A stretch of DNA of 64,000 nt from NCBI GenBank assembly GCA_025353725.1, contig JANXOF010000038.1, forward strand, positions 1-64,000. The letters run 5' to 3'. The position numbers were made by a program, and so were the translations under genes. Source of the DNA: Polyangiaceae bacterium (GTDB lineage Bacteria > Myxococcota_A > Polyangia > Polyangiales > Polyangiaceae). The number at the start of each line of letters is the position of its first letter. The stretch's first letter is position 1. Under the pieces are notes generated by a model, which made no database searches, had not been told where the DNA came from, and worked only from the letters and a program-made list of their open reading frames with translations. Below are positions 1-16,700 of the stretch, piece after piece.

Positions 1-68
1 ATCAGCTCGCGATGCCGCTCGGCCCCATCACGGTGCCGCCCGCGGAACAACAGCCTGCGCCGAGCTAA
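1..68 (+). pseudogene. tnpC: IS66 transposase TnpC, C-terminal codons (partial at window edge)
   Basis: The frame starting at base 3 reads QLAMPLGPITVPPAEQQPAPS and stops with TAA at 66-68. The same C-terminus, frameshifted by one extra base, is found on the minus strand near 4155-4215, next to a clear IS66 TnpC sequence. This identifies the fragment as the 3' end of a DDE transposase gene. Whether the rest is intact cannot be seen. Confidence 0.65.
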
Positions 69-120
69 GCCAACTTCCACGCTCGCGAGTCTCGGTCATC
101 ACAGGCTCCAAGTCGAGAAC

Positions 121-142
121 GTGTCTCCGTGCAGGGGATACC
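121..142 (-). repeat. IS66-type terminal repeat, copy C
   Basis: The reverse complement begins GGTATCCCCTGCACGG and is identical over 22 bp to 4081-4102. It differs by one base (aggcac for agacac) from 3925-3946. It marks the outer end of the insertion element. Confidence 0.7.
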
Positions 143-739
143 GGCGAGCGTGGGATCCTTGTGACCGGACGTCTCGATCGCCTCGGGCGGGACGCGCTCG
201 ATATGCACTAGGTGGTTGCGCTGCTTCTCGATCACGGCGTCCGGATCGTGTCGCTGAAGGACGGGATCGACAGCGCCTCGGGCCTCGGCGGGACGGTGCT
301 CAAGCTCTTGACCAACATCCTCGCGGGCTTCGCCGAGTTGGAGCGGGACACGATCCGCCAACGCCTGCTCGACGGTCGCCGTCGCGCCGAGCGGGAAGGC
401 CGCGCCTACGCATCCGAGCCCCGGTATGGCCGGCGCCTCGGAGAGGATGGGAACACCATCGTGGACGACGTGGGCGAGCTGGCAGCCGTCGAGCGCGCCC
501 GAGCGCTCCGCCAGGAGGGGATGTCCTTCCGCGCCATCGCCCAGAGGCTCGGGGACGAAGGCCATCGACCGCGTCGCGCGACGGTCTGGTCGGCCGTCGT
601 GATCCGCCGCCTTGTGCTCGGGGCTCGCGGGGTACCCGTCGCCGTCGGGAAGCGCCTTGGCCGGGCACGGACTGACATCATCCTCCGTCGCCTGCTCGAC
701 ACCAGCGTCAAGGGCGAGGCATCATCGACCCCGCCGTGA
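143..739 (+). pseudogene. Serine recombinase (resolvase family), disrupted
   Basis: The frame from 143 reads GERGILVTGRLDRLGRDALDMH, then TAG at 209-211, then VVALLLDHGVRIVSLKDG and onward. This is the second half of a resolvase/invertase catalytic domain ('RLDRLGR', 'LAGFAELERDTIRQRLLDGR'), followed by a helix-turn-helix-like segment ('EGMSFRAIAQRLGDEG'). The N-terminal part with the catalytic serine is absent because an IS66 end abuts at 142. With the in-frame stop as well, the gene is dead. Its stop (737-739) overlaps the GTG start of the next gene. It was probably the recombinase of a resident mobile element. Confidence 0.75.
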
Positions 740-1305
740 AGTACGACCGCACCGTCATCGCCTATCACGGCTGCGACACCGCCACCGCCGAGGAGATCCT
801 CGCCGGGGGCACGTTCAAGAAGAGCCAGAACAACTACGACTGGCTCGGCGAAGGCATCTATTTCTGGGAGTTCGGTGCCGACCGCGCCGTCCAGTTCGCC
901 GAGTTCCAAAAGGGCATGGGCAAGGTGAAGACTCCCGCCGTGGTGGGCGCCATCCTCCAACTCGGCGAATGCTTCGACCTCATGGACACGCGATTCACGC
1001 GAGACCTCGCGAAGGCGTACGCCGCCTTCAAGAAGGTGAAGGCGTTGGCCAAGGAGCCCTTGCCGAAGAACAAGGGAAAGACGCCCGACAAGAAGCTGCG
1101 CCACCGGGATTGCGCCGTGCTGAATTTTTATCTCACTGCGCTTGCCGAGGAAGGTCTTCGCTACGACACGGTGCGGTGCGCCTTCGTGGAGGGTGGGCCA
1201 GCCTTCCCTGGGAGCGGCATCCGAAGCGAGAGCCACATCCAGATCGCCGTCCGGAATCCAGCTTGCGTGGTGGGGGTTTTCAGGCCCACAATGGAGAAGC
1301 CATGA
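736..1305 (+). CDS. Predicted ADP-ribosyltransferase-fold protein, candidate toxin
   Basis: A 189-residue soluble protein with no signal peptide. 'AYHGCD' near residue 10 (His11) and 'GEGIYFWE' near residue 40 (Tyr42) resemble the H and Y motifs of PARP/diphtheria-type ADP-ribosyltransferases. A C-terminal 'SESHIQIAVRNP' near residue 170 could supply the third acidic/polar motif. The GTG start at 736 overlaps the recombinase stop. The stop overlaps the ATG of a 71-residue partner (ATGA), so the pair is translationally coupled as in toxin-antitoxin cassettes. Position inside an island supports a toxin role. Family membership is inferred from motif spacing only, and the substrate is unknown. 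Confidence 0.5.
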   Translation: MKYDRTVIAYHGCDTATAEEILAGGTFKKSQNNYDWLGEGIYFWEFGADRAVQFAEFQKGMGKVKTPAVVGAILQLGECFDLMDTRFTRDLAKAYAAFKKVKALAKEPLPKNKGKTPDKKLRHRDCAVLNFYLTALAEEGLRYDTVRCAFVEGGPAFPGSGIRSESHIQIAVRNPACVVGVFRPTMEKP

Positions 1306-1517
1306 GCCAAAAGGCCAAAAACAAGCGCACCGTGGAGAAAGCCAGCGTCGACGCTGGCACCCAGGTGCGCCGCAAGGTCCTGGCCAAGATGGGCAAGATG
1401 TCGCCCGGCGAGCTGTTCGAGCTTGCCGTAAGGGCAGGTATCTACACGGAAAAGGGCAAGCTCACCCGGCCGTACCGGGATGACGCGGGACCCAGCGCCA
1501 GCCGACCGACGGACTGA
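1302..1517 (+). CDS. Small partner protein of the ART-like gene (hypothetical)
   Basis: A 71-residue protein starting at the ATG that overlaps the preceding stop by 4 nt. It is basic at the N-terminus ('MSQKAKNKRTVEK'). It then has a helical segment ('MSPGELFELAVRAGIYTEKGK') that looks like a short protein-binding or DNA-binding module. The overlap and size suggest the antitoxin or accessory partner of the upstream protein. The codon pattern runs cleanly to the TGA at 1515-1517. No named family is recognised. Confidence 0.5.
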   Translation: MSQKAKNKRTVEKASVDAGTQVRRKVLAKMGKMSPGELFELAVRAGIYTEKGKLTRPYRDDAGPSASRPTD

Positions 1518-2013: not shown

Positions 2014-2538
2014 TCAGGGAGAGGCTCGGTGCGAGGTGCGGGCACAGAGATACTTGGCTACGAAGGCGTCAATGATTGCGTCGCTAATGAACGGGTTGGC
2101 CTCGCCGATGCGCCGGGCGACCGCCTCGGCCTCGCTCGGTGATATGCCGCCCGCCGCCGCCGCCAACCCGAGGACCTCCAGGCCCCACATCACGCTCACC
2201 CCGTCTTGGCCACATGCGGTGCGCAGCGCCTTGTCGTTGGATACGCAGGTCCACTCGTTGACCTTGGCGAGAAGAAGGCAGATGTGGTCGCGAGGCGAAA
2301 GGCGCCCGCGCTTGCGCGCCGACGCATCGAGCATGTCGAGAGTCGGCTCGATCACCACGAGACCAAGGGAGACCGCTTGGTCCTCATCGAGTTCGTCGAC
2401 CTCGTCCAAGACGGTCGACACGATGTGAACCTGTCCTACGTGGCGCGAGATGACCCCGAGCACGGAGACGTCGGCGTCGCAGAAGTCGATGAGGACGCAG
2501 GCGTCGACGATGAGCAGGCGAGGGCCCCCGGACGTCAT
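2014..2538 (-). CDS. PIN-domain protein (VapC-like putative ribonuclease toxin)
   Basis: A 174-residue protein with PIN-domain acidic positions: 'LLIVDACVLIDF' at the N-terminus (Asp12, Asp18), 'LDEVDELDED' in the middle, 'SPRDHICLLLAK' and 'CVSNDKALRTAC'. PIN proteins of this type cleave RNA with a metal cluster made by these acids. It starts 3 nt after the stop of the XRE-ImmA gene, so they are one operon. Pairs of XRE-COG2856 with PIN proteins are a known predicted toxin-antitoxin arrangement. The C-terminal 40 residues are rich in Ala/Glu and may contact the partner. Confidence 0.75.
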   Translation of the reverse strand: MTSGGPRLLIVDACVLIDFCDADVSVLGVISRHVGQVHIVSTVLDEVDELDEDQAVSLGLVVIEPTLDMLDASARKRGRLSPRDHICLLLAKVNEWTCVSNDKALRTACGQDGVSVMWGLEVLGLAAAAGGISPSEAEAVARRIGEANPFISDAIIDAFVAKYLCARTSHRASP

Positions 2539-2541
2539 CGT

Positions 2542-3702
2542 CTACTCAAGCCACGAGGCCGCCACGCTGCGCATCGTCTTGAGATCGACGTCGAGGATTT
2601 CGGCTGCGCGTCCGATCGAAATTTCACCTCGATCCACCCCTTCTTTTACGAGCCGCAACAACCGGTCTTCCACGAAGTCGCACGGAGAAAGGTGCTCCGG
2701 CTCCTCGGCTGCCCGAGCCACTGGCGTGGAAGCACTTGCGGAAAACTCTTGAGGGTCGAGACCCTGGGGCTCTTCGACGCCGCGGAGGGGCCGTCCCGTC
2801 GACCGCTTGTAGGCACTGTAGAACTGAGGCCAGATTTTCGCCGAGTCTGGCGAGCGGGAGGCGATCCTGTACACGACGGTCTTCCAGCTCACGCGAAAGA
2901 TGCGCTTGATCTTGAACACGCGCTCGACAAGTCCGAGACCCCGCGCTTCTGCCCACTCCTTCTCGAAGAGGTCCTCGGGCATCAAGAAGTGCGTGGCAAA
3001 GAGATTGGCCTCGGCTTCCTGAGTTTCGTCCTCTTCTGCCTGCGCCACGTCGAAGGCGTCGAGATGCAACAGGAGGTGGCCGAGTTCGTGAGCCGCCGTG
3101 AAGATCCACCGTTCGACCGAGATGCGATCCCAGCGATTTACGACCACGGCAGGGCCGCCGTCGCCCTCCCCCACCGACAATCCAAAGAACCCTTCCGAGG
3201 CGACCGACGGCGTGAAGACCTTCACGCCGTGGTCCTCAAGCAGCCCGCAGATGTCTCGGATTAGCTCGTGCTGGTCTAGTCCCAGCGCTTCCCTTGCGCG
3301 CTGAGCGGCACCCACGATGTCTCGGTTCTTCTCGCCTCCAAGCGTGCGCGCGAGCGCAGCAAGTTGGAAAGGCTCGCGCCGGTCGAGAAGCCCTTCCAGT
3401 TCGCTATAGTCGTCGAGCCACCGGGCAACGTTGGCGAGCAGGTCCTCTCTCGAAGTCATCTTCTTCTGCGCCCGAAACCGAACGGACCGGAGCTGGCGCA
3501 CTGGCACCAACAAGTCGTCGGCCTTCACGCCAAGGGCGGACGCCACGCGTCTAAGCGACTCGACGCGCGGTTCGACGATCCCCTCTTCGATCCGGCGGTA
3601 CCCCTCGCGCGACAGGCCCGCCTGCTCGGCGACGTCGGCCTGGCTTAGCTTCCGACCCGCCCGTACGCGTCGGAGGTTCGTGCTGAGAACGGTCAGGTCC
3701 AT
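2542..3702 (-). CDS. XRE-family regulator with ImmA/IrrE metallopeptidase domain
   Basis: A 386-residue cytoplasmic protein. Residues 5-60 form an XRE helix-turn-helix ('LSQADVAEQAGLSREGYRRIEEG'). The middle has the zinc-protease signature 'AAHELGHLLLH' (HEXXH) followed by 'EAEANLFATHFLMPEDLF', typical of ImmA/IrrE (COG2856). The tail ('AAEILDVDLKTMRSVAASWLE') looks like another small helical DNA-binding segment. It is the first gene of an operon with the PIN protein and probably acts as antitoxin or autoregulator. The ATG at 3702 is followed upstream by a large dyad that may be its own operator. Confidence 0.85.
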   Translation of the reverse strand: MDLTVLSTNLRRVRAGRKLSQADVAEQAGLSREGYRRIEEGIVEPRVESLRRVASALGVKADDLLVPVRQLRSVRFRAQKKMTSREDLLANVARWLDDYSELEGLLDRREPFQLAALARTLGGEKNRDIVGAAQRAREALGLDQHELIRDICGLLEDHGVKVFTPSVASEGFFGLSVGEGDGGPAVVVNRWDRISVERWIFTAAHELGHLLLHLDAFDVAQAEEDETQEAEANLFATHFLMPEDLFEKEWAEARGLGLVERVFKIKRIFRVSWKTVVYRIASRSPDSAKIWPQFYSAYKRSTGRPLRGVEEPQGLDPQEFSASASTPVARAAEEPEHLSPCDFVEDRLLRLVKEGVDRGEISIGRAAEILDVDLKTMRSVAASWLE

Positions 3703-3717
3703 CTTGATCCTTCCTCA

Positions 3718-3763
3718 TTCAAGGTAGCAGGTTGACAAAGTTTGTCTAGATGCCACCTTTGAA
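3718..3763. promoter_or_regulatory. Divergent promoter region with nested dyads (putative XRE operator)
   Basis: The core GACAAA-G-TTTGTC (3734-3746) is a perfect dyad. It is bracketed by an imperfect outer dyad, TTCAAGGTAGCA (3718-3729) against TGCCACCTTTGAA (3751-3763). A TTGACA hexamer overlaps the core (3733-3738). It lies between the XRE-ImmA start and the divergent truncated gene at 3809, the expected place for an autorepressor site. No convincing -10 hexamer could be picked. Confidence 0.45.
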
Positions 3764-3808: not shown

Positions 3809-3970
3809 ATGAGCGGCGAGTCAAACGCGACCGAAGAGCACGGGAAGTCCGAGGTGAAGATCACCGTCGACGGCAGCCACTTTGAGATTCACCGAGGGAA
3901 CCGCTCGGTCCTGGAGATCAAGAAGGTATCCCCTGCACGGAGGCACGTTCTTTCATCGATAATGGCTTGA
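3809..3970 (+). pseudogene. Truncated ubiquitin-like (multiubiquitin-type) protein, N-terminal part only
   Basis: The ATG at 3809 opens a frame reading MSGESNATEEHGKSEVKITV then DGSHFEIHRGNRSVLEIKKV. At 3925 the IS66 terminal sequence begins, and translation continues in IS sequence to a TGA at 3968-3970. The native part (about 39 residues) has the start of a beta-grasp repeat: strand 'VKITVDG', strand 'FEIHRG', then a helix start. This resembles bacterial multiubiquitin-domain proteins. Such genes often sit with ThiF/E1, E2 and JAB genes, none of which remain here. The family call is tentative because so little is left. Confidence 0.45.
3925..3946 (+). repeat. IS66-type terminal repeat, copy A
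   Basis: The first 22 bp match 4081-4102 except for one base (aggcac versus agacac). The terminal repeat is at the tnpA end of this element, whereas in the other two copies it is at the tnpC end. It is therefore a true inverted terminal repeat of the IS. Confidence 0.65.
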
Positions 3971-4080
3971 CGGCATACTCGCGTGAATGAGGACGAGTGC
4001 AGAGCAGTGGGCGGAACGTGTACGCGCTTGGCGCGAGAGCGGCGTGACAGGAGAGAAATTCGCGAAGTCCATCGGATGTC
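3925..4080 (+). mobile_element. IS66-family element, left end (copy A), truncated
   Basis: This begins with the terminal sequence GGTATCCCCTGCACGG and continues into the first 31 codons of tnpA. At 4081 it is cut by the end of another copy of the same IS. It interrupts the ubiquitin-like gene. Orientation is plus, opposite to the copy that interrupts it. Confidence 0.65.
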
Positions 4081-4124
4081 GGTATCCCCTGCACGGAGAC
4101 ACGTTCTCGACTTGGAGCCCGTGA
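3987..4124 (+). pseudogene. tnpA: IS66 TnpA (accessory protein), truncated
   Basis: ATG at 3987 gives MRTSAEQWAERVRAWRESGV then TGEKFAKSIGC, the helical N-terminus typical of IS66 TnpA ('EQWAERVRAWRESG'). After residue 31 the frame enters the end of a second IS copy at 4081 and stops at 4122-4124. The normal protein is roughly 100 residues or more, so this is a remnant. Confidence 0.6.
4081..4102 (+). repeat. IS66-type terminal repeat, copy B
   Basis: Identical over 22 bp to the reverse complement of 121-142. It forms the boundary between the tnpA fragment of copy A and the tnpC end of copy B. Confidence 0.7.
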
Positions 4125-4154
4125 TGGCCGAGACTCGCGAGCGTAGAAGTTGGC

Positions 4155-5330
4155 TTAGCTCGGCGCAGGCTGTTGTTCCGCGGGCGGCACCGTGATGGAG
4201 GCCGAGCGGCAACGCGAGCTGCTTCCCGTCGAGGCGAGCCCGCGTTCGCAACCCGTACTTCGGCGCGAGCTCGAGATACCGGTCGCGCGGCCAATACGAC
4301 ACGACACGAATCATCGCCTCGAGGTAAGACTAGGGGTCGAGGTCGTGCAGCATGCACGACGCGAGGAGAGAAAACAGGTTGGCCGCCGCTTGCGCGTGAA
4401 CGCCCGATCCGCAAAACATCCACGCTTTGCGCCCAACAGCAAGGACTCGCAGGGCGCGCTCACTGGCGTTGTTTTCCAGGCGAAGCCTTCCATCGTCAAG
4501 AAAGCGACAGAGCGCGGCGCGCTGGCGGAGGGCGTACCCAAACGCGTTTGCCACGGGACCGCGCACCTGACGAACGCGTTCAAAGACGTGGCGGTGCCCA
4601 ACCGAAAAACTCGTCAAGGAGCGGACGGGAGGCAAGTTGCCTACGTTCGTGCCGTTGCTTCGGCGCGAGCGATGCCCACTGCTTTCTTGATAGTCGAAAA
4701 ACACGTGGTCGCGATCGGCCAGCACGACAAAGAAGTGACCTCTCGCGCAGGCTTGGCGCTTGCCTTCAGGGTGTCGCGACGGTTGTATCTTTATCCCCGT
4801 CGCATCTGTCGAAAGACAGAATGCCGTCTCTCGTGCCTCTTTTGCACATGCGTCGACAATGCACCCCAACGTGGCGCCGACGTGCTCGGCATAGCGGCAC
4901 ATCGTACTGTCGTCGCAGCGAATGCCTTCGCTCGCGAGCTCCTGAACGAGTCGCGTAAACGGCATACCGAAACGAAACTTCTTCGTCAGAATGTGCGCCA
5001 CCAGCGACGGCGCCAGAAGCCCGCTCGCCATGATTTCTTTCGGCAAGGCCGCCGTCACGAACCGAGGCGGCTCTCCCTCGGGCGTTACCTTGTACGTGAC
5101 GCGCGCCATCACGATACGGACCGGACCTCCCGGGCGACGGCCAAGCTTGGAGCTCTCCTCGAATCCGATGCGCTCGGCGACGCCCTCGAGCGACGGGTCC
5201 TCAATCACGACACGCTCCTCGGGCATGTCTTCTTCGGCAAGATTGCGACGACCCGTGGGCGACTTGCTAGTGGGACGCTTTTCTCGCTTCCTCCTTTGTT
5301 TTTGCCTTCGGGCGTTCCGATCAGAACTGC
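4155..5330 (-). pseudogene. tnpC: IS66 transposase TnpC, decayed
   Basis: The minus frame covers a basic lead ('RRKREKRPTSKSPTGRRNLA', upstream of the ATG at 5226). It then has the IS66 body 'LSTDATGIKIQP' with the first catalytic Asp, and the tail 'CRFLDDGRLRLENNASERAL'. Between 'FFDYQESSG' and 'GPVANAFGYAL' the expected block, including the second catalytic Asp ('QADA' type), is replaced by unrelated sequence. This points to an internal deletion. The frame breaks near 4330, continues in another frame as 'YWPRDRYLELAPKYGLRTRA', and shifts again near 4195 relative to copy C. The element is non-autonomous. Confidence 0.75.
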
Positions 5331-5624
5331 GTCCGCGCGAGGATCGCGGAGCACGAGGGCGCGAACCAGAGCTACCTCGAAGACGGAATCCACCTTCTCG
5401 AACTCTCCCGCCGCGCCCACGAGCTGTTCGGGAAGGCTCCGGCGGGCGAGAAACGGAAGATGCTCGCCCTACTACTCTCGAACTCGATCTGGAAGGACGA
5501 CGAGCTGACCGTTACCTACCGCGAACCCTTCGACATCATCGCGAAAACCGCGACGACCCAAAGGGCGTTGGCCCCGACCGGGAGCGGAGATTCCGATCCT
5601 CGTACACTATGGCTCCGACTGTAG
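5331..5624 (+). pseudogene. Serine recombinase, C-terminal fragment
   Basis: The plus frame reads 'ARIAEHEGANQSYLEDGIHL', 'LELSRRAHELFGKAP', 'LALLLSNSIWKDDELTVTYR', 'EPFDIIAKTA' and stops at 5622-5624. This matches the C-terminal region of large serine recombinases. There is no start or catalytic domain, because the fragment abuts the broken IS66 copy B. Its last codons lie on the antisense of the tRNA-Asn 3' end, as if the gene had been next to an attachment site. It may or may not belong to the same element as the fragment at 143-739. Confidence 0.65.
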
Positions 5625-5685
5625 GACTCGAACCTACGACCCGGCGGTTAACAGCCGCCTGCTCTACCAACTGAGCTAAGTCGGA
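5610..5685 (-). tRNA. tRNA-Asn (anticodon GTT)
   Basis: The minus strand folds as a full cloverleaf. The acceptor TCCGACT pairs with AGTCGGA, the D arm is AGCTCAGTTGGTAGAGC, the anticodon arm GGCGGCTGTTAACCGCC carries GTT, and the T arm is GTAGGTTCGAGTCCTAC. CCA is encoded at the 3' end. The 3' end faces the recombinase fragment and mobile debris, so this gene probably served as an integration site. The acceptor stem is intact, so it should be functional. Confidence 0.97.
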
Positions 5686-6781: not shown

Positions 6782-8158
6782 CTACGATGGCCACGGGAGA
6801 CGCATCGTGAACGTCGCGCCGCCGCCTGGCGTCTCCGTCACCACCACGGTTCCGCCGTGCGCCTCCGCGCTGCTCCTAACGACGGCGAGGCCGAGCCCGG
6901 TTCCGCTCGGCCGCGTCGAATAGAACGGCGTAAAGATACGCTCGCGTTTGTCTTCGGGCACACCAACGCCGTCGTCACGGACTTCGATCACCAGCGTCGC
7001 ACCGTGGCAAGGTTGCCCCGTGCTTTGTGCGACGCGCACGCGGACGGCTTCGCGTCGGTCGGGCGTTTGAAGGGCATTCGTAACCAAATTGATCACGGCC
7101 TGTCGGACCAGTCGCGGGTCGCAGACCGCAGGCTGCACGCCGGTTTCCACGTCGACCACGACCGCGCCTTCAGGGGCGTCGCAGGCGCTGCATGCGGCCC
7201 CCACCGCACTCGTGACCACACCGCCGACCGACGCGACCGCGAACACGGGAGGTCGCGGGCGGGCAAACTCGAGCAAATCCGAGACGACGTCACGCAAGCG
7301 CTCGGCCTCTTCCTGAATAATGCCTGTAAGCGCCTCATGCGCCTCCGAGCCGGGAGTCGCTTTCCGAAGCCCGGACGTCGCGTTGAACACGACAGCGAGA
7401 GGGTTTCGGACTTCGTGCGCGACGACGGCTGCGAGTTCGCCGAGCGCGGCAAGGCGCTCGCGTTTAACAAGCTGTTCTTGAGTCGAAGCGAGATTCTTTG
7501 CGGAGATCTCGAGCGCTCTCGCGCTGGCGACAAAGCTTGTTGTTAGCGAGCCGCCGACCGCGACGACGAGCACTAGCGCGGTCAAGTCGAGAATGTAGGG
7601 CCCGCCGATGAGTCCGACCTGCGCGAGCGAATCGTGAAGCGCACCCACAAGGACGGCCCCTACCGTGATGCACTGCACGGTGGCCTTTTGATCGCCGCGC
7701 TTGAACCGTCGGGCATACCGCACGAAAACGATGGCGAGCGTGCCGAGGTGAAACCCGTAGGCGAGGGTGCCGTAGGTGTTAGGGGCGGTGTCCGCATACG
7801 TGACCCCGAGCCAAGCGACCTTGCGTTCGAGGAGCGTCGAGCCCACGAGCGCGCCTGGAAAGAGCGATAGGATAGCGACGACAACGCCTACCCCGATGAG
7901 CACGCGCTCCCACGCTCGAAGGGCTCTCCGCTCCTGCACCGCCGAATAGCAAAACCACGCAAGCGCGTGCGAACCTCCGAAGAAGAGACTCGCGCGAGAG
8001 GCGAGAAGAACGGTCTCGAGCGGCGCGCGCACAGTGACCAGTCCATTGGAAAGACTGAACATCGCAGCCAGTGCTGCGCACAGAGCAAACCACCGAAGCT
8101 CGCGCTGTCCGGGCGCGGCCGACATTCCCAGAGCCAGAAGGGCCACAAGAAGCCCCAC
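6782..8158 (-). CDS. Membrane sensor histidine kinase (orphan)
   Basis: A 458-residue inner-membrane kinase. About the first 210 residues form six or seven hydrophobic segments ('MGLLVALLALGMS', 'ILSLFPGALVG', 'ILDLTALVLVVAVGG') with no PAS domain. A dimerisation helix with the phospho-accepting His in 'AAVVAHEVRNPLAV' follows. The ATPase domain has an N box 'AVINLVTNALQ', G1 'VRDDGVGVPEDKRE', an F box 'IFTPFYST' and G2 'GTGLGLAVV'. This is the NtrB/ZraS-like arrangement. No response regulator gene is adjacent, so its partner is elsewhere. The start is a GTG and could be off by a few codons. Confidence 0.88.
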   Translation of the reverse strand: MGLLVALLALGMSAAPGQRELRWFALCAALAAMFSLSNGLVTVRAPLETVLLASRASLFFGGSHALAWFCYSAVQERRALRAWERVLIGVGVVVAILSLFPGALVGSTLLERKVAWLGVTYADTAPNTYGTLAYGFHLGTLAIVFVRYARRFKRGDQKATVQCITVGAVLVGALHDSLAQVGLIGGPYILDLTALVLVVAVGGSLTTSFVASARALEISAKNLASTQEQLVKRERLAALGELAAVVAHEVRNPLAVVFNATSGLRKATPGSEAHEALTGIIQEEAERLRDVVSDLLEFARPRPPVFAVASVGGVVTSAVGAACSACDAPEGAVVVDVETGVQPAVCDPRLVRQAVINLVTNALQTPDRREAVRVRVAQSTGQPCHGATLVIEVRDDGVGVPEDKRERIFTPFYSTRPSGTGLGLAVVRSSAEAHGGTVVVTETPGGGATFTMRLPWPS

Positions 8159-8322
8159 GGACGCAGATACAATCGCGAGAAGGGCAGGGAGGGTCAGGCG
8201 TCAGATCCTAGCGACCGACCCTCCGCCATGCACTCACGAACGCGTTAGGTCTCGAACTCCGACCGAAGCGCGCACTTTTCCGCTCTGTCGGTCTGTGGTG
8301 CCTGACGCGTTCAGACTTCGCG

Positions 8323-9156
8323 CTACTCGGCGCGGTTGCGGATCTCCCAACGCGAATCAGCGACCGTGCCGAGCACTTTGCTGACGAACGCCTGGAGTTC
8401 CTCGACAGGCATATCGAGCTTTCGCGCAGCTGACTCGTAGGAAGCAAACGAACCTCCCGAGGGATCCAAGCGCGCGAAGAAGTCCGTGAGCTCGCGGTCC
8501 GAGAACCCCAAGTTGAGGAGGTCTGTTCGGTTGCCTTCGAGGCCGCTCATCATGGCGCCGCGGAGCCGCGTGGCGGAGGCTATTGACATCCCGTGGCCGA
8601 TGGCCATGGCTTCAACCGTGACATGATTGATGTCGTTGCCGATCGTCGTGGGCTGTGACGCTTGCGCGACGAGCGACGTCTGCCCGGCGAACTTGTCGAC
8701 GGCCACGAACCACGACCGCTCTCGGGCCTCCGAGCTATTGGCCATCAGCGACGCGGGACTGCGCACGTCTCCGCAGTAGGCAACACGAGCGCACTCCCTG
8801 GTAATGAAACCGCCAGCGCCGATGCGATCAAAGCATACGTCGGTGTACGCGAATTCGTACGGTGCGCAGGTGATGCGGCCGTTGAGATCGATTTGACGCG
8901 TGCGGCTCGCGACGCACTCGTCGACGAAGCTCGGTGACTTCTGCTGACAGAAAGCCTTGTTGATGATTCCGTCATATTCGTGAGAAATTCCCGTGCTCGC
9001 TTCGGTCGAAGGCGTAGACCGGAGAACGCCAAAATCACACCCGGTTACGGCGATCGCCGCTACCGAGATGGACGAACAGACCACGACCGAAACGAGCGCG
9101 CGGCGCGCGAACGAGCCTGATGAGCGTGACGACGAAAGTAAGAGACTTCGAGACAT
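8323..9156 (-). CDS. Hypothetical secreted lipoprotein
   Basis: About 277 residues from the ATG at 9156, which has a good AAGGGG ribosome site 6 nt ahead. A longer frame reaches 9228 but lacks such a site. The signal peptide 'ALVSVVVCSSISVAAIAVTG' is followed by Cys, suggesting lipid attachment. The mature protein has several Cys ('ACAPYEFAYTDVC'-type spacing, 'ECARVAYCGD') and a helical C-terminus. The domain is not recognised. Confidence 0.7.
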   Translation of the reverse strand: MSRSLLLSSSRSSGSFARRALVSVVVCSSISVAAIAVTGCDFGVLRSTPSTEASTGISHEYDGIINKAFCQQKSPSFVDECVASRTRQIDLNGRITCAPYEFAYTDVCFDRIGAGGFITRECARVAYCGDVRSPASLMANSSEARERSWFVAVDKFAGQTSLVAQASQPTTIGNDINHVTVEAMAIGHGMSIASATRLRGAMMSGLEGNRTDLLNLGFSDRELTDFFARLDPSGGSFASYESAARKLDMPVEELQAFVSKVLGTVADSRWEIRNRAE

Positions 9157-9357
9157 AATAAACCCCTTGGGTTGGCCTACCGTGAGCCAACGAAGAGGGG
9201 TGCTAGTGATCCGCCTTGGAGATGGCAATTCTATTTGGCGCTACCCATCAATCACTAATTGTCACGGACACATAGCGATGAGCTTCGCAATGGCAGTCCG
9301 ACGTTTGCTCACGATACGGCGCGCCTAATCCCCTCGATAGGCGCGTTGAATCCTAAT

Positions 9358-9388
9358 GTGCAACGTGCAACGTGCAACATGTTGCACG
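9358..9388. repeat. Triple GTGCAAC tandem repeat with inverted copy (palindrome)
   Basis: GTGCAAC occurs three times head to tail (9358-9364, 9365-9371, 9372-9378) and is followed by GTTGCAC (9381-9387). This makes a perfect 18-bp palindrome at 9371-9388. It lies just past the stop of the acyl-CoA dehydrogenase and about 200 bp upstream of the lipoprotein start. It could be a terminator without a T tract or a transcription-factor operator. Confidence 0.6.
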
Positions 9389-9396
9389 TTCGCTGG

Positions 9397-11253
9397 CTAA
9401 ACCGTCGCGAAACCCGCGTCCGGGATATCGAGGGGCGAACGGTCTTCGTCCGCCAGCAGTTGGGCCTTTTGCTCGACGCCGGGTAGAACGTTACGTGCAA
9501 AGTACAACGCAGCGGCTACTTTGCCTGCATAGAACGCGAGGTCTGGGTGCGCCTCTGGAACGCTGGCCTTCGCTTTTTCAGCCAAGACAGCGCCCTCCAG
9601 TAGCTGCCATCCGACGGTGAGCTCGCTCATCATTTCGCAAAAGCGATTCGCCGAAAGCGGGACGAGCCCGACTTGCCCACTTTGGAACCACATGAGAAGG
9701 CGCATGGCTGTCGCCCCGACCGCCTCTTGAGCAACGGCGAGCTTTTTTACAGCCGCGCCGAGAGTCGCGTGCGCGGAATTCGCGGCGACAAATTTCGCGA
9801 TGTCGCCGAGGAACGCCTGGAGGTTCGCACCCCCCGCTTGCCCGAGCTTGCGACCGACGAGATCCATCGCCTGAATGTGGTTCGTGCCCTCGTAGATGCT
9901 GAAAATCTTCGCGTCGCGACAGTACTGCTCGACCGGGTAATCGCGCGTGTAGCCTGCGCCGCCGTACGTCTGAATCGCGGTTTCACACACGCGAAATCCC
10001 TGGTCCGAACCATACGCTTTGAGCAGCGGAACGAGCAGGTCGACTTGACCTTGGTGGTACGCGGCCTTCGCGTCGTCTTTGCCTTCGTGGACGAAAACCT
10101 GGTCCTGATGCATGGAGAGTTTCACCGCAAGCGCGCGAAGGCCCTCGACCATGGACTTCATCTGCAGAAGCATGCGGCGCACGTCAGCGTGTTCGATGAT
10201 CGAGACCCGCGGCGCTGTCGCGTCCTTCCAGTGCGTAATGCTCGCGCCTTGCTTGCGGTCCTTCGCGTAGTCGAGAGCATTGAGGTAGGCGCTCGAGGCG
10301 ACGGCGAGGCCTTGAACACCTACCGAAATACGTGCCGTGTTCATGAGTTTGAACATCTGGGCCATACCTTGGTTGATCTTTTCGTCGCCCCCGACGGGCC
10401 AACCTTTGCAACCGCCGTTGTCTCCAAAGTTCAGGACACACGTGGCTGAACCGTTGATTCCCATCTTGTGCTCGAGAGCGCCGACAGATACGTCGTTCGA
10501 GGCTCCGACGCTGCCATCGGCGTTGACAGATAGCTTTGGTACGATGAAGAGGGTCAGCCCTTTGGTGCCTGCCGGCGCCCCGTCGACGCGCGCCAGCACA
10601 AGGTGGATGATGTTGTCGGCAAGGTCGTGGTCGCCGCCGGAGATATAGATTTTCGTACCGCGAATGGAGAAACTTCCGTCCGGATTCAACGACGCTGTGG
10701 TCTTTGCGCTCCCGACGTCCGTGCCCGCGTGCGATTCCGTAAGGCACATCGTACCGCCCCATGCGCCGCTGATCATCGGCTCTGCGAACGTCTTCTTTTG
10801 GGCAGACGTACCGAATTGTTCGATGACTTCCGCGGCTCCGTAGGCCAGCCCCGGATACATATTAAAAGCTGCGTTCGCGCCCGACAGAAACTCTTCAATC
10901 AACACCTGAAGGCATCGCGGCGCGCCGGCACCTCCTTGTTCGGCGGGAACGGCGATAGCCTTCCAGCCGGCCTCGTAAAGCTTCTTCCAAGCGTCTTTGA
11001 ATCCGGTCGGCGTCACCACGCCTCCGTTTTCTAACTTGCAGCCTTGAATGTCACCTACGACGTTGAGCGGTCCAAGGACTTCGCGCGCGAAGCGATAGCA
11101 CTCGGTGAGCGAAGACTTGACCTCCTCTTCGCCCCAGGCCTCATACGGTGCGTGGCCAAGAAGCTCGTTCACTCGAAACTGCTCAAAGAGCAGAAACTGG
11201 AACTCGCGGAGGTCAGCCTTGTAGCGATTGATGGTCTGAATCGGCTTCGTCAC
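9397..11253 (-). CDS. Acyl-CoA dehydrogenase (DmdC/long-form family)
   Basis: An FAD enzyme of 618 residues that oxidises an acyl-CoA at the alpha-beta bond and passes electrons to ETF. The N-terminal extension ('YKADLREFQFLLFEQF') is the one found in 600-residue acyl-CoA dehydrogenases such as DmdC. The middle domain shows 'MCLTESHAGTDVGSAKT'. The C-terminal domain has 'YGGAGYTRDYPVEQYCRDAK' and 'IYEGTNHIQAMDL', the Glu there being the expected catalytic base. GTG at 11253 is preceded by AGGAGA at good spacing. It stands alone; the partial 3-hydroxyacyl-CoA dehydrogenase at the window end may serve the same pathway. The substrate cannot be read from sequence. Confidence 0.93.
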   Translation of the reverse strand: MTKPIQTINRYKADLREFQFLLFEQFRVNELLGHAPYEAWGEEEVKSSLTECYRFAREVLGPLNVVGDIQGCKLENGGVVTPTGFKDAWKKLYEAGWKAIAVPAEQGGAGAPRCLQVLIEEFLSGANAAFNMYPGLAYGAAEVIEQFGTSAQKKTFAEPMISGAWGGTMCLTESHAGTDVGSAKTTASLNPDGSFSIRGTKIYISGGDHDLADNIIHLVLARVDGAPAGTKGLTLFIVPKLSVNADGSVGASNDVSVGALEHKMGINGSATCVLNFGDNGGCKGWPVGGDEKINQGMAQMFKLMNTARISVGVQGLAVASSAYLNALDYAKDRKQGASITHWKDATAPRVSIIEHADVRRMLLQMKSMVEGLRALAVKLSMHQDQVFVHEGKDDAKAAYHQGQVDLLVPLLKAYGSDQGFRVCETAIQTYGGAGYTRDYPVEQYCRDAKIFSIYEGTNHIQAMDLVGRKLGQAGGANLQAFLGDIAKFVAANSAHATLGAAVKKLAVAQEAVGATAMRLLMWFQSGQVGLVPLSANRFCEMMSELTVGWQLLEGAVLAEKAKASVPEAHPDLAFYAGKVAAALYFARNVLPGVEQKAQLLADEDRSPLDIPDAGFATV

Positions 11254-13201: not shown

Positions 13202-13780
13202 TTAGCGAACAGCGTAAGCGCGGTGGAGCATCAGGAACACAAGTACGCCTGTCACCGAGACGTAGAGCCATATCGGGAAGAGTACTTTGGTTATTCTCTT
13301 GTGCGTCGTGAAGCGCTGCTTGAACGCAAAGTAAAACGCCGCGAGGCACATGGGTACCACCGGTATCGAAAGGAGCACGTGGCTCGCGAGGAGTAGAAGG
13401 TAGCCGGTTCGCAGGGCTCCGGCGCCCGGGTACTTCGTATCGCCGTGGACATAGTGGTAGGCGAGATAACCAACGAGGAAGAGCGAGCTAGAAGCGAACG
13501 CCGAGAGCATCAGCGCCTGATGTTGTGCGACTCGCTTTCGCTTGATAGCGCGTACGCCGAGCACGAGAAATACCGCAGCGGACGCGTTGAAGCTCGCATT
13601 GACTGCGGGCATGAACGAGAGCGCCGCGGGGTCTCCGCCCGATCCGTGGCGCACAAGCAGAATGTAGGTGAGGACCGAAAGTGCGATGACGGACACTACG
13701 CCGTTCACGATCCAGAACGAACGATCGCCTTCGGGCCTAGGCCCACCCGTGGGTACAGGCTGAGGCCGGACCGAGGCCAT
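13202..13780 (-). CDS. DUF420 membrane protein
   Basis: A membrane protein of 192 residues with about five hydrophobic segments ('IVNGVVSVIALSVLTYILL', 'SSLFLVGYLAYHYVHGD', 'GYLLLLASHVLLSIPVV', 'LYVSVTGVLVFLMLHRAY'). His-containing helices ('AYHYVHGD', 'LASHVLL', 'RFTTHKRI') match the DUF420 family, which includes the cytochrome-oxidase assembly factor CtaM. The start ATG overlaps the upstream glycosyltransferase stop as TAATG, so translation is coupled. No oxidase genes are near, so an assembly role is family-based inference. Confidence 0.8.
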   Translation of the reverse strand: MASVRPQPVPTGGPRPEGDRSFWIVNGVVSVIALSVLTYILLVRHGSGGDPAALSFMPAVNASFNASAAVFLVLGVRAIKRKRVAQHQALMLSAFASSSLFLVGYLAYHYVHGDTKYPGAGALRTGYLLLLASHVLLSIPVVPMCLAAFYFAFKQRFTTHKRITKVLFPIWLYVSVTGVLVFLMLHRAYAVR

Positions 13781-16700
13781 TAGAGGTCGGCGCGGACGAG
13801 CACGAACTTGTTGCACACCGTGCGGTCCGTGAGCTCTTTGTAGCTCTTTGCGTTAATCTCACCGCGGAGCCCGCCGGTGCGACTGTGCTCGGTGATGAAA
13901 TACATGACCTTTGCACCTTTCTGTTCCTTCTGCGTCTTCAGCCAGGTCTGGAACGTTGCGCCCGAGGAAACGAACGCTGGGATGTGATTGCCCGTATAGA
14001 AGTTTTCGCCTTTCCAGTTCATCTGGTAGGCGACAAGCTGATCTTCGGGGCCTGTTCGGTCTTTGTAATACGCCTCGATCACCTCATGTTGACCCCAGTG
14101 CGGCGAGGTCTTGACCATGTAGACGTCCAAGCCCCAAAGCGCCCAAACGAGCGAAAAAGCGCAGAACGCACTCACCGCGTGTCGGCGAAAGCGACCGATC
14201 GACATCGCGAGCGACAGGAGCGCTCCGACCGCTGTAAAGCCGCCGATGACTGCCGCAAAGTCCAAGGACTCAGGCCACGTGCGCTTGTAGTTGTACGTAA
14301 AAAGCTGAAGCAATCGGATGGCGCCTGGCTGATCCGAACCTTCGGGTTTAGCGACGAGGTCGCGTCCGACCAGGACGAGTACAAAGGCGCCAAGCAGCAC
14401 TGCACCCGCGATCATCCGTTGCTCGTGCGAGCGCCGACGGGACTCGGAGACACTCTCGTCTCCTACTTTCGCGCCGCCACGGTACGGCGTGAGGCCGAAA
14501 TCGGGGCCGACTTCGCTAACTTCGCACGAGGCGCTTTCGGTCGCATCGGAGGGCAACGAGCTTTTGCCACGGAAGGCATACGCGACGATCGCGGTGGCGG
14601 CGAGTCCGAGACCGCCCATGAGACTGGCCACCACCAAGTTACCTTCGGCGCCCGCCGCGGGAGCTGCACCGAAAACGCTGCCGGGCCAAGCGTGCGACAT
14701 GCCCCAGACGGCGAGGGCCGAGGCAACGCCCAGACCGATGCCGTAGACGGGAAGTCGCCGCAGCGCCGTCAGCGGCTTGTTACCGAGAATGTCGTCCAGG
14801 ACTACGCCGATGAGCATCGCTACGGGCGGAACGGCCGGGAAGATGTAGTGGTGAAACTTCGTTCCCATGAACGTAAACAGGAAAAACGCAAAGAGAAACC
14901 ACATCACGAGCATGACGGAGGCGTCGCCGACGGCCGACCCTGCGACCGAAGCGTCGCCGTTCTCGGTTGCGCGGGTCCCGGCACGAAAAACCCGCGACAA
15001 GGCAGAGTCGCTGCGGCGGAAGCCCCAAATGAGCCCGAGAGGCGCGAGGCCTGTCCACGGGAAGAGCGCATAACCAAGTTGCCAAAGATAAAATCGAATG
15101 CCCGTGTCGTCGCCCTCGTTCGTGTCGTGAACGTGCGCAAAGGCGCGGTTGAACATATCGTGGAAGATCAAGCGATCCGTGAACGGCGCGCCGTGACGGA
15201 CGTACATGGCGACGTACCAAGGCAGCGCCACGGCAAGGATGACAAGCACTCCCGTCAAGATCTCGAGCCGCAAAAGCTCGCTCCAGCGACGTTTCGTCGC
15301 GACGTAAGCGAACGCGCAAATCATGGGCAATGCGAAGCCCGCGGGCCCTTTCGCCATGGTGGCTACGGCGGCGCACAACCAGGCTGCGATATAAAGAAGT
15401 CGACGTGTGCGACGCTCACCCCAGTTCAAGTAAAGCGTGCCGCCGAGTACAAGCCCCCACATGGCAGCCTGAAGCGAGGGCTCGAAGCCCCCAACGTAGC
15501 GGACGACATTGGCCCAAAGGCCGGTCGGATTTGCGCCAACCGACTTTGGAATCGAAGCGGGGTTGTGCATGACACAAGCTTCGTTCCCGGGCAGTCCACA
15601 GTTCATGGCCGAACCGCTCTTGAATTCGTCCCAGTGGAACCTGAACCCCTTGGGTCCGGAGCCGCTCAAGACAAGCTCGATATTGCGTGACACCAGGTAG
15701 AGAATCTGCGGAAGCGCGCAGAGCACGACGATCCCAAACACGAGGTGCCAGAGGGACACACGGAAGCGTCGCCCGAAAAGGTCCACGGGGTAGCTCTGCG
15801 CGCGCGCCTCCTCGTCCGTGTTGAGACCGTTGAGAAGCAAGCCCATGGCGCCCGTCATGGCGGCGACGAAGGGCATGTCGGTCATCGTTTGATGAGCGAG
15901 GAAAAACCAATCGGACATCGTCGCCAAGACAACGGCTCCGAGGAACCCCGCGCGCCGCCCAAAGACCTTCGCTACGCCCTTATAAAGGAGATACATAGCC
16001 ACGAGGGTCATTAGGACGTTCGGCGTTCGGACGACCCATTCGGGCCGGGCCGTCCACGCGCCGTGGGCGCCTGCGAGCATCCTATCGGCGCCGTAGTGCG
16101 TTCCGAGCGACGCCATCGCGAGCGACTGAATCCAGAAGTTGAGGATTGGTTTAGACCAAAACCAGCCGTCTTGGGCCCACCAAAGTGAAACCCAGTCATC
16201 GCGCGCGAGAATCTCACGCGCGACTTCGCCGTAGTGCGTTTCCCAGGGGTCCCAAAGCGATTGGAGCCCCATCGCCGGAAAATAGAGAAGAGCGCCTATC
16301 GCGAGCACCCAAAAGCCGTGTCTTTGCCAGAGTGGGCGCGCCAATCCGAGTTCGTCGAGCCTCCAAGGTCCGATGGCGACTCCGAGGCGAAATACGGACG
16401 CAACGAGCGCGATAAACGAAGACGTGACCGAGAGCGAGCCGAACCACCACGGCCCGACGGCCGCCTGCGCGAGCGCAAGAGAGCCGCAAAACGCGAGAAA
16501 AAGTAGAGTTGTGACGCCAAAAGAGAGTTTTACGGCGTTGGCCGGCTCCACGGTCGTGCTCGAAGGTCGCAACGCACTCAACTCGCCGGATGCCGTACTT
16601 ACCGCCTCGGTGGCCGCAGCGAGCACGCCGCCTCCGCGCGCGTCGTCGTCATCGAACGTGCCAAAAAAGTCGAGCAGACCCCACGCCGCGATGGCCACGA

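What the first reader, a model, noticed from the sequence alone, without database searches (positions are those of the whole stretch)
3809..3970. IS66-cut gene for a ubiquitin-like (multiubiquitin-type) protein
The first 39 codons look like the start of a beta-grasp repeat and diverge from the XRE-ImmA/PIN operon. Bacterial ubiquitin-like operons are of interest as defence systems, and this one seems destroyed by a transposon. An intact version may exist in relatives next to the same XRE-ImmA-PIN pair.
Basis: inference. Interest (0 to 1): 0.6.

Follow-up and report, generated by a model that had tools for sequence, protein, structure and literature searches.

The report
Transposon-cut ubiquitin-like gene beside toxin pair
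A bacterium carries the first 39 codons of what is probably a ubiquitin-like protein gene, cut off by a jumping gene, next to a repressor-protease/toxin gene pair whose counterpart in a related bacterium sits beside a complete ubiquitin-like defence operon.

Summary
An ATG-led, coding-like frame runs 39 codons (3809-3925) and is cut by the left end of an IS66-family element; a second, truncated IS66 follows. It diverges, 106 bp apart, from an XRE-ImmA gene and its PIN-like partner.

No curated library recognises the 39 residues and no homologue was found. Yet a profile of 17 multiubiquitin domain sequences from relatives aligns them to the domain's start at 9.9 bits, reached by 2 of 10,000 shuffles and 0 of 3,012 control pieces and inside the range of equally truncated true members.

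Context supports this. In G271 (same family) the homologous pair diverges from a Ubl-E2-JAB-E1 (Bil) operon; in G022 a fused XRE-ImmA precedes multiubiquitin and E2 genes; 5 of 14 multiubiquitin loci carry an ImmA/CapP-family protease. An operator-like repeat lies between the divergent genes.

Best reading: remnant of a Bil/Bub-type operon under a RosmerTA-like controller. Against it: no E1, E2 or JAB survives here, only 1 of 25 relatives read shows such an operon, G271's Ubl is of another kind, and AlphaFold shows strands without the expected helix.

The parts
3809..3925 (+). First 39 codons of the interrupted gene; residues 14-39 align with the start of the multiubiquitin (PF14452) domain
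   Evidence: ORF; codon-position G+C; profile score and controls
3926..4080 (+). Left end of IS66 copy A: inverted repeat and start of tnpA, cut off after about 155 bp
   Evidence: TnpA model E=7.5e-6, just under cut-off, for the ORF that starts at 3987
4082..5300 (-). Second IS66 copy, right end first; tnpC on the - strand (ORF 4330-5226), 5' part apparently missing; right limit approximate
1..142 (+). Right end of a further IS66 copy at the contig start; 25-143 pairs with 4080-4198 as an inverted repeat (97% over 119 nt)
   Evidence: window position on the contig
3734..3746 (.). Operator-like palindrome GACAAAGTTTGTC in the 106-bp intergenic region, part of a TGACA-N5-TGTCA-like site seen upstream of many XRE-ImmA homologues
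2542..3702 (-). XRE-ImmA protein, 386 aa: HTH, M78 metalloprotease with HELGH, weak UPF0175 match at the C-terminus; matches RmrA, capP and capH models
2014..2538 (-). PIN-like protein, 174 aa, probable toxin partner
   Evidence: PIN_4, E=0.088, below cut-off; PDC-S70, E=0.003; conserved neighbour; the L025 partner just reaches the PIN cut-off
736..1305 (+). 189-aa protein related to PD-T4-9_A of an anti-phage system; other cargo of the same region
   Evidence: E=2.7e-6; phrog_14664, E=1.2e-16
212..739 (+). Truncated serine recombinase
   Evidence: Resolvase, E=4.7e-8
5610..5685 (-). tRNA-Asn (gtt) to the right of the disrupted region

Best explanation
The fragment is the N-terminal part of a ubiquitin-like (beta-grasp, multiubiquitin-type) modifier, the first gene of a lost bacterial ubiquitin-like conjugation operon of the Bil/Bub kind. 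The surviving divergent pair is its controller: the XRE-ImmA protein binds the inverted repeat between the two genes and represses both its own toxin operon and the ubiquitin-like operon. Infection or DNA damage would activate the ImmA protease, cut the repressor, switch on the modifier operon and free the PIN nuclease. An IS66 insertion after codon 39 destroyed the modifier gene. A second IS66 and later deletion removed the rest, while the toxin-antitoxin pair survived. Shown: the frame, the IS66 cut, the domain similarity, the recurrent repeat, and an intact parallel in G271. Inferred: repression, protease triggering, PIN toxicity and the order of events.
For: Profile of multiubiquitin domains from phylum relatives: 9.7-9.9 bits, aligned at the domain start; 2 of 10,000 shuffles and 0 of 3,012 control pieces reach it; it is the top hit among six-frame segments of 30 aa or more in 28 XRE-ImmA loci plus the window's first 9 kb, though with E=1.1 in that space. 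17 true members cut at the same column score 4.8-25.4 bits in leave-group-out tests; the fragment scores 7.9-11.1 with the same profiles, above 5 of the 17. G271/L025: XRE-ImmA/PIN divergent from Ubl-E2-JAB-E1; PADLOC BilB E=0.0027, BilC 1.3e-9, BilD 2.3e-26; the E1 matches the solved BilD 8tyz at 3.1e-17. G022/L161: fused XRE-ImmA, an ORF I read as PIN-like (no Pfam match), Multi_ubiq (4.5e-8), Prok-E2_E (2.6e-40) in a row. 5 of 14 Multi_ubiq loci have an ImmA/CapP-family protease: 4 capP on the opposite strand, facing away, and 1 fused RmrA. Operator: 18 of 26 upstream regions within 2 mismatches, shuffle mean 3.9, maximum 8 in 200. PMC13373217 (passages read) reports 219 of 544 Bub operons with CapW or CapH+CapP.
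Against: No hit in Pfam, NCBIfam, PADLOC or PHROGs at permissive thresholds. No credible homologue in 306 class genomes, in plasmids, or by scans of genome contigs and viral contigs. AlphaFold of the 39 residues alone gives three strands (16-21, 24-29, 32-38; mean pLDDT 80, other models 57-65) and no helix where a beta-grasp should start one. No PF14452, Prok-E2_B or BilD-like E1 match in the own genome; searches had no positive control that rang. G271's Ubl scores -0.7 bits with the same profile. Of the 25 relatives whose upstream side was read, only 1 has a ubiquitin-like operon there. A global MAFFT placement put the fragment at the other end of the domain.
Confidence: 0.68

Rival explanations
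1. The fragment is the start of an unrelated small protein of a defence island (for instance another toxin-antitoxin or effector gene) whose beta hairpin resembles a beta-grasp by chance; XRE-ImmA/PIN is a free-standing RosmerTA-like pair and its neighbours are random island cargo.
For: Other XRE-ImmA loci have varied divergent neighbours: DUF2188 (L023), C5 methylase (L038), a chimeric-looking ORF with DUF1016/YhcG (L032), a weak HTH protein (L014); type I restriction on a Methylomagnum plasmid. AlphaFold shows three strands. The profile score is just under 10 bits.
Against: Specificity controls, calibration on true members, and recurrence of ImmA-family proteases next to multiubiquitin genes in 5 of 14 loci.
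Confidence: 0.22
2. The ORF is a chance open frame upstream of the IS66 insertion and codes for nothing.
For: Only 39 codons remain; no homologue was found.
Against: ATG start, third-position G+C 0.87 with second position 0.36, stops in each other frame, divergent position 106 bp from XRE-ImmA, and the profile match.
Confidence: 0.08
3. The gene encoded a BilA-like modifier of a Bil operon, as in G271, rather than a multiubiquitin/Bub-type one (overlaps with the best explanation, which leaves Bil or Bub open at the operon level).
For: The one intact parallel with a close XRE-ImmA (about 60% identical) is a Bil operon.
Against: The fragment matches the multiubiquitin profile whereas G271's Ubl does not.
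Confidence: 0.15

Closest known systems
Bub operons (bacterial ubiquitination-like; multiubiquitin PF14452) with CapH+CapP
   Same: Modifier gene facing away from an ImmA-family protease gene; seen here in 4 of 14 phylum loci with stand-alone capP; CapW or CapH+CapP reported at 219 of 544 Bub operons (PMC13373217, passages). That PF14452 genes belong to Bub operons is recalled
   Different: Here HTH and protease are one protein, with a UPF0175-like tail and a PIN partner; the modifier operon is destroyed
Bil (bacterial ISG15-like) operon
   Same: G271's homologous XRE-ImmA/PIN pair diverges from a Ubl-E2-JAB-E1 operon with BilB, BilC and BilD matches
   Different: The fragment does not resemble G271's Ubl; no Bil gene survives in the window
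RosmerTA (RmrA ImmA-protease antitoxin with diverse RmrT toxins)
   Same: XRE-ImmA matches RmrA models up to E=2e-31; association of the ImmA antitoxin node with PIN-like domains is in PMC10440598 (passages)
   Different: Toxin here is a PIN-like protein, weakly recognised; in G271 the pair adjoins a modifier operon
CapK+CapS and VapKSC
   Same: A DNA-damage controller found beside Bub, Bil and CBASS operons, with a related version holding a VapC-like (PIN) toxin (PMC13373217, passages)
   Different: Kinase plus STAS repressor, not an HTH-protease; there the toxin version is a standalone locus
IS66 family insertion sequence
   Same: TnpA and TnpC homology, terminal inverted repeats
   Different: The copies here are partial

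Membership tests
Multiubiquitin (PF14452) | Match to the Pfam model above its gathering score | tested here: not met
   No hit for the 53-aa and 39-aa queries at E<=1, nor for the 39 residues at E<=10 (HMMER's filters drop most weak matches); the fragment covers about 26 of 69 positions
Multiubiquitin (PF14452) | Sequence pattern of the domain's N-terminal part | tested here: met
   9.9 bits with a profile of 17 relatives' domain sequences, 2/10,000 shuffles, 0/3,012 pieces; within the range of true truncated members. The profile is mine, not a curated one
Multiubiquitin (PF14452) | Complete beta-grasp fold | tested here: inconclusive
   AlphaFold of the truncated 39 residues: hairpin plus third strand, no helix
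Multiubiquitin (PF14452) | Repeated domains or C-terminal tail | not testable with these tools
   Sequence after codon 39 is lost
Bil/Bub conjugation operon | E1 (ThiF), E2, JAB or equivalent downstream | tested here: not met
   IS66 remnants follow instead; own genome has no BilD-like E1 or Prok-E2_B match (without a ringing control) and its 3 ThiF matches lie on other contigs
RosmerTA | HTH-ImmA protease antitoxin (RmrA) | tested here: met
   PADLOC RmrA E=2e-31; Peptidase_M78 E=1.9e-16; HELGH motif in the sequence
RosmerTA | Toxic partner neutralised by RmrA; phage protection | not testable with these tools
   PIN-like neighbour conserved in 20 of 28 loci; no assay possible
CapH+CapP controller | Repressor and protease as two separate proteins | tested here: not met
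   One 386-aa protein matches capH at residues 4-85 and capP at 143-285
IS66 | Transposase DDE_Tnp_IS66 and terminal inverted repeats | tested here: met
   PF03050 105.1 bits over its cut-off of 23.1; repeats. NF033517 scores 142.7, under its cut-off of 180, which fits a truncated copy
IS66 | Target duplication with a partner end | tested here: not met
   None of the 30 ends whose flanks were read (of 35 found) has the outward flank TCAAGAAG; 5 ends were not read. The 8-bp duplication of IS66 is recalled

The most novel reading that the evidence does not exclude
Fused XRE-ImmA antitoxins with PIN toxins form a further class of dual-purpose controller for ubiquitin-like conjugation operons (Bil and Bub): one protein represses the modifier operon and holds back a PIN nuclease, so a single proteolytic event arms modification and cell suicide together, and loss of the modifier operon leaves an addictive toxin pair behind, as in this window.
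Probability: 0.27. Interest if true: 0.62.

Novelty: new variant of a known kind. Interest (0 to 1): 0.38.

Why it matters
Bacterial ubiquitin-like operons are a young class of putative immune systems whose control is only now being worked out. [quoted passage not shown] A fused HTH-protease with a PIN toxin next to such operons would couple their control to a toxin-antitoxin pair and gives a clear bench prediction in G271's intact locus. The window itself is a dead remnant, so it matters as a pointer rather than as a working system.

Tried and rejected
Family libraries on the fragment: nothing in Pfam, NCBIfam, PADLOC or PHROGs. PDB by sequence: DARPin and collagen-adhesin noise, best E=0.22. 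PF14452 in the own genome: none. Fragment against 306 class genomes: besides the window itself, two weak hits (E=0.051 and 0.092), rejected on reading the surrounding frames. Plasmids: one chance hit, E=6. The 53-aa query over genome contigs: 422 stretches matched a pattern, none confirmed. A degenerate DNA pattern for [VIM]DGxx[FY]E[IV]H[RS]G over genome contigs gave 45 stretches; by my reading about 38 are ABC-transporter ATPases and none of the 45 looks ubiquitin-like. Viral contigs: nothing confirmed with the alignment query and one chance match with the pattern. These collections may leave out records very near the window's genome. Fold search with G271's Ubl model (mean pLDDT 54.5) returned mostly ferredoxin-like designs, best E=0.002; discarded as uninformative. 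The first calibration of the profile test was mis-cut because MAFFT placed the fragment at the other end of the domain; it was redone with the cut taken from the profile alignment. A promoter scan of the intergenic region found nothing. Search for the lost half of the gene by its target duplication: not found. ARAGORN's tRNA-Gly at 3108-3189 lies inside XRE-ImmA and is taken as false. An early guess that L032's divergent gene is a CD-NTase was dropped: Pfam sees DUF1016/YhcG and the frame looks chimeric.

Limits and dropped rows: the operator motif was chosen after looking at the same sequences, the shuffles keep base composition only, and the gap could vary from 3 to 7, so 18 of 26 is optimistic; 8 of 26 fit best with a gap of 5 and at most one mismatch. 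Of 21 XRE-ImmA places outside the window, 20 were fetched in full, not the partial G017:C306. Of 28 fetched loci, 3 (L039, L040, L041) were left out of the upstream reading because the gene is partial or only 29-31% identical, while L151 of similar identity was kept; L145 and L146 have only 315 and 127 bp upstream. The profile leaves out L046 (near-identical to L045) and L053 (same gene as L049), and includes two matches just under Pfam's cut-off (L051, L052) and two second-domain stretches that I chose (L043b, L045b). The control pieces come from mechanically chosen longest ORFs, some of which are not genes. Many contigs are short, so absence of E1 is weak evidence.

Full report
What is there. 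The window is the start of contig C30 (81,422 bases) of a 6.6-Mb genome in 98 contigs. The ORF at 3809-3970 exists. Its first 39 codons have coding-like base composition (G+C 0.54/0.36/0.87 at positions 1/2/3), while each of the other five frames has a stop in that stretch. From 3926 on, the sequence is the left end of an IS66-family element; the same inverted repeat recurs at 4082 and, reversed, closes the IS66 end at 1-142. With up to 2 mismatches the repeat occurs 35 times in this genome and the reversed control pattern not once. Two types of end can be told apart (GGAGGCACG and GGAGACACG): copy A shows the first type and the start of tnpA, copy B shows the second type and a tnpC that looks 5'-truncated. 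A third end, of the second type, opens the contig. The lost half of the interrupted gene was sought through the 8 bases before the insertion; none of 30 ends with flanks read, of 35, carries them.

The neighbours. The divergent pair is an XRE-ImmA protein (HTH, M78 protease with HELGH) and a PIN-like protein. The first matches RmrA of RosmerTA (E=2e-31) and, in separate parts, capP (1.1e-17) and capH (8.5e-10); a weak UPF0175 match lies at its C-terminus (E=0.008; 1.5e-4 in the G022 protein; both under the cut-off). Further left lie a PD-T4-9_A-like protein and a truncated serine recombinase; to the right a tRNA-Asn. I read this as a decayed defence island.

Is the fragment ubiquitin-like? Curated libraries are silent, which is not surprising for about 26 of 69 domain positions. 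I built a profile from the PF14452 domains found in relatives: 14 domain sequences in the first version and 17 in the second, after three more loci. The fragment's residues 14-39 align to positions 10-35 of the first profile, near the domain start. Scores: 9.7 and 9.9 bits; with either profile 2 of 10,000 shuffles and 0 of 3,012 39-residue control pieces reach this. In a six-frame search of the 28 XRE-ImmA loci and the window's first 9 kb the fragment is the top hit, though with E=1.1 for that search space. Genuine members cut at the same column and scored without their close relatives give 4.8-25.4 bits; the fragment gives 7.9-11.1 with the same profiles and beats 5 of 17. This is a test of one stated hypothesis, not a database search, and supports but does not prove homology. 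AlphaFold on the 39 residues alone gives a hairpin plus a third strand and no helix, which speaks mildly against it; a truncated single sequence may be predicted wrongly.

The prediction about relatives. XRE-ImmA homologues were found in 20 of 317 class genomes at E<=1e-20, own genome included, and in 16 of 377 phylum genomes at E<=1e-40, own included, 8 of them not in the first list. I fetched 28 neighbourhoods and read the upstream side of 25. In one, G271 (same family; XRE-ImmA about 60% identical, PIN 47%), the pair diverges from Ubl (116 aa), E2, JAB and E1 genes that overlap end to start. PADLOC gives BilB 0.0027, BilC 1.3e-9, BilD 2.3e-26 and nothing for the Ubl; Pfam gives ThiF 7.7e-10 and a Prok-JAB match under its cut-off; the E1 matches the solved BilD 8tyz at 3.1e-17. 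The Ubl has no family match and its model is poor, so its ubiquitin-like nature rests on position. ThiF was near XRE-ImmA only in G271 among 20 genomes, own included.

The reverse look. All 14 genomes with PF14452 matches (11 of 306 at E<=1e-3, 6 of 377 at E<=1e-4, 3 shared) were fetched around the match. Five of 14 have an ImmA/CapP-family protease nearby. Four are capP (E from 1e-32 to 3e-58), each on the opposite strand to the modifier gene and facing away from it, about 0.3-1.3 kb apart. The fifth, G022, is a fused XRE-ImmA (RmrA E=4.5e-25) followed by an ORF that I read as PIN-like but that has no Pfam match, a multiubiquitin ORF matched over 41 of 69 profile positions, and a Prok-E2_E gene; I saw no E1 behind it. 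G022's XRE-ImmA is only distantly related to the window's (28% identity over 281 residues). So an ImmA-family controller beside a multiubiquitin gene recurs, and in G271 and probably G022 a fused XRE-ImmA beside a modifier operon brings a PIN partner.

A likely operator. Upstream of the XRE-ImmA start lies GACAAAGTTTGTC (3734-3746). A TGACA-N-TGTCA inverted repeat within 2 mismatches is present in 18 of 26 upstream regions, against a mean of 3.9 and a maximum of 8 in 200 shuffles; the motif was chosen after the fact. In the window and in G271 it lies between the two divergent start codons. A consensus promoter scan of the window's region found nothing.

Literature. PMC13373217 (passages read): 219 of 544 Bub operons are associated with CapW or CapH+CapP; CapK+CapS genes lie beside Bub, Bil, CBASS and other operons, with control shown for a Bub operon; a CapK/CapS-like pair also controls a VapC-like toxin; Bub operons have not been shown to protect against phage. 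PMC10440598 (passages read): RmrA-type ImmA antitoxins, often with an N-terminal HTH, pair with varied toxins, PIN-like domains among them. I found no paper on XRE-ImmA/PIN pairs beside Bil or Bub operons in the listings of three searches; the library lacks most subscription papers and preprints, so this says little. PMC12255303 (passages) adds only background.

How it most likely worked. By analogy with CapH+CapP, XRE-ImmA would repress both divergent units and be cut or relieved on damage or infection; the tail may hold the PIN protein. Each of these steps is inference. What survives can at most be a toxin-antitoxin pair. The beta-grasp topology, the 8-bp target duplication of IS66 and the placing of PF14452 genes in Bub operons are recalled and come from no call.

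Verdict. The general point, a fused HTH-protease/PIN pair beside modifier operons, is the part worth testing.

Noticed in passing
L161 (G022), 7985-10753: Fused XRE-ImmA, an ORF I read as PIN-like (no Pfam match), a multiubiquitin ORF that loses the profile after 41 of 69 positions, Prok-E2_E and a possible JAB start in a row, then unrelated genes: perhaps another decaying modifier operon.
   Followed up: partly
L153 (G051), 13457-14323 (-): Besides its capP gene, this multiubiquitin locus has a second, XRE-ImmA-like match (25% identity, E=1.9e-9).
   Followed up: no
window 736-1517: PD-T4-9_A-like protein (189 aa) followed by a 71-codon frame whose ATG overlaps its stop codon; possible two-gene defence or toxin pair.
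   Followed up: partly
own genome, 35 places: IS66 ends of this family are abundant and many lie close to contig ends, so the assembly is probably broken at them, including at the window's first base.
   Followed up: partly
L032 7464-8525 (-): Reading frame that to my eye begins like a nucleotidyltransferase and continues as a DUF1016/YhcG nuclease, divergent from XRE-ImmA; looks chimeric.
   Followed up: partly
L025 12175-17949: Beyond the Bil operon of G271 lie a helicase-like protein and a methylase-like protein (my reading of the translations), so the pair seems to sit in a larger defence island.
   Followed up: no
L152 (Methylomagnum ishizawai plasmid pRS11DPr4): XRE-ImmA homologue (48.5% identity) with a 169-aa hypothetical partner beside a type I restriction system and a SprT-family protease gene.
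   Followed up: partly
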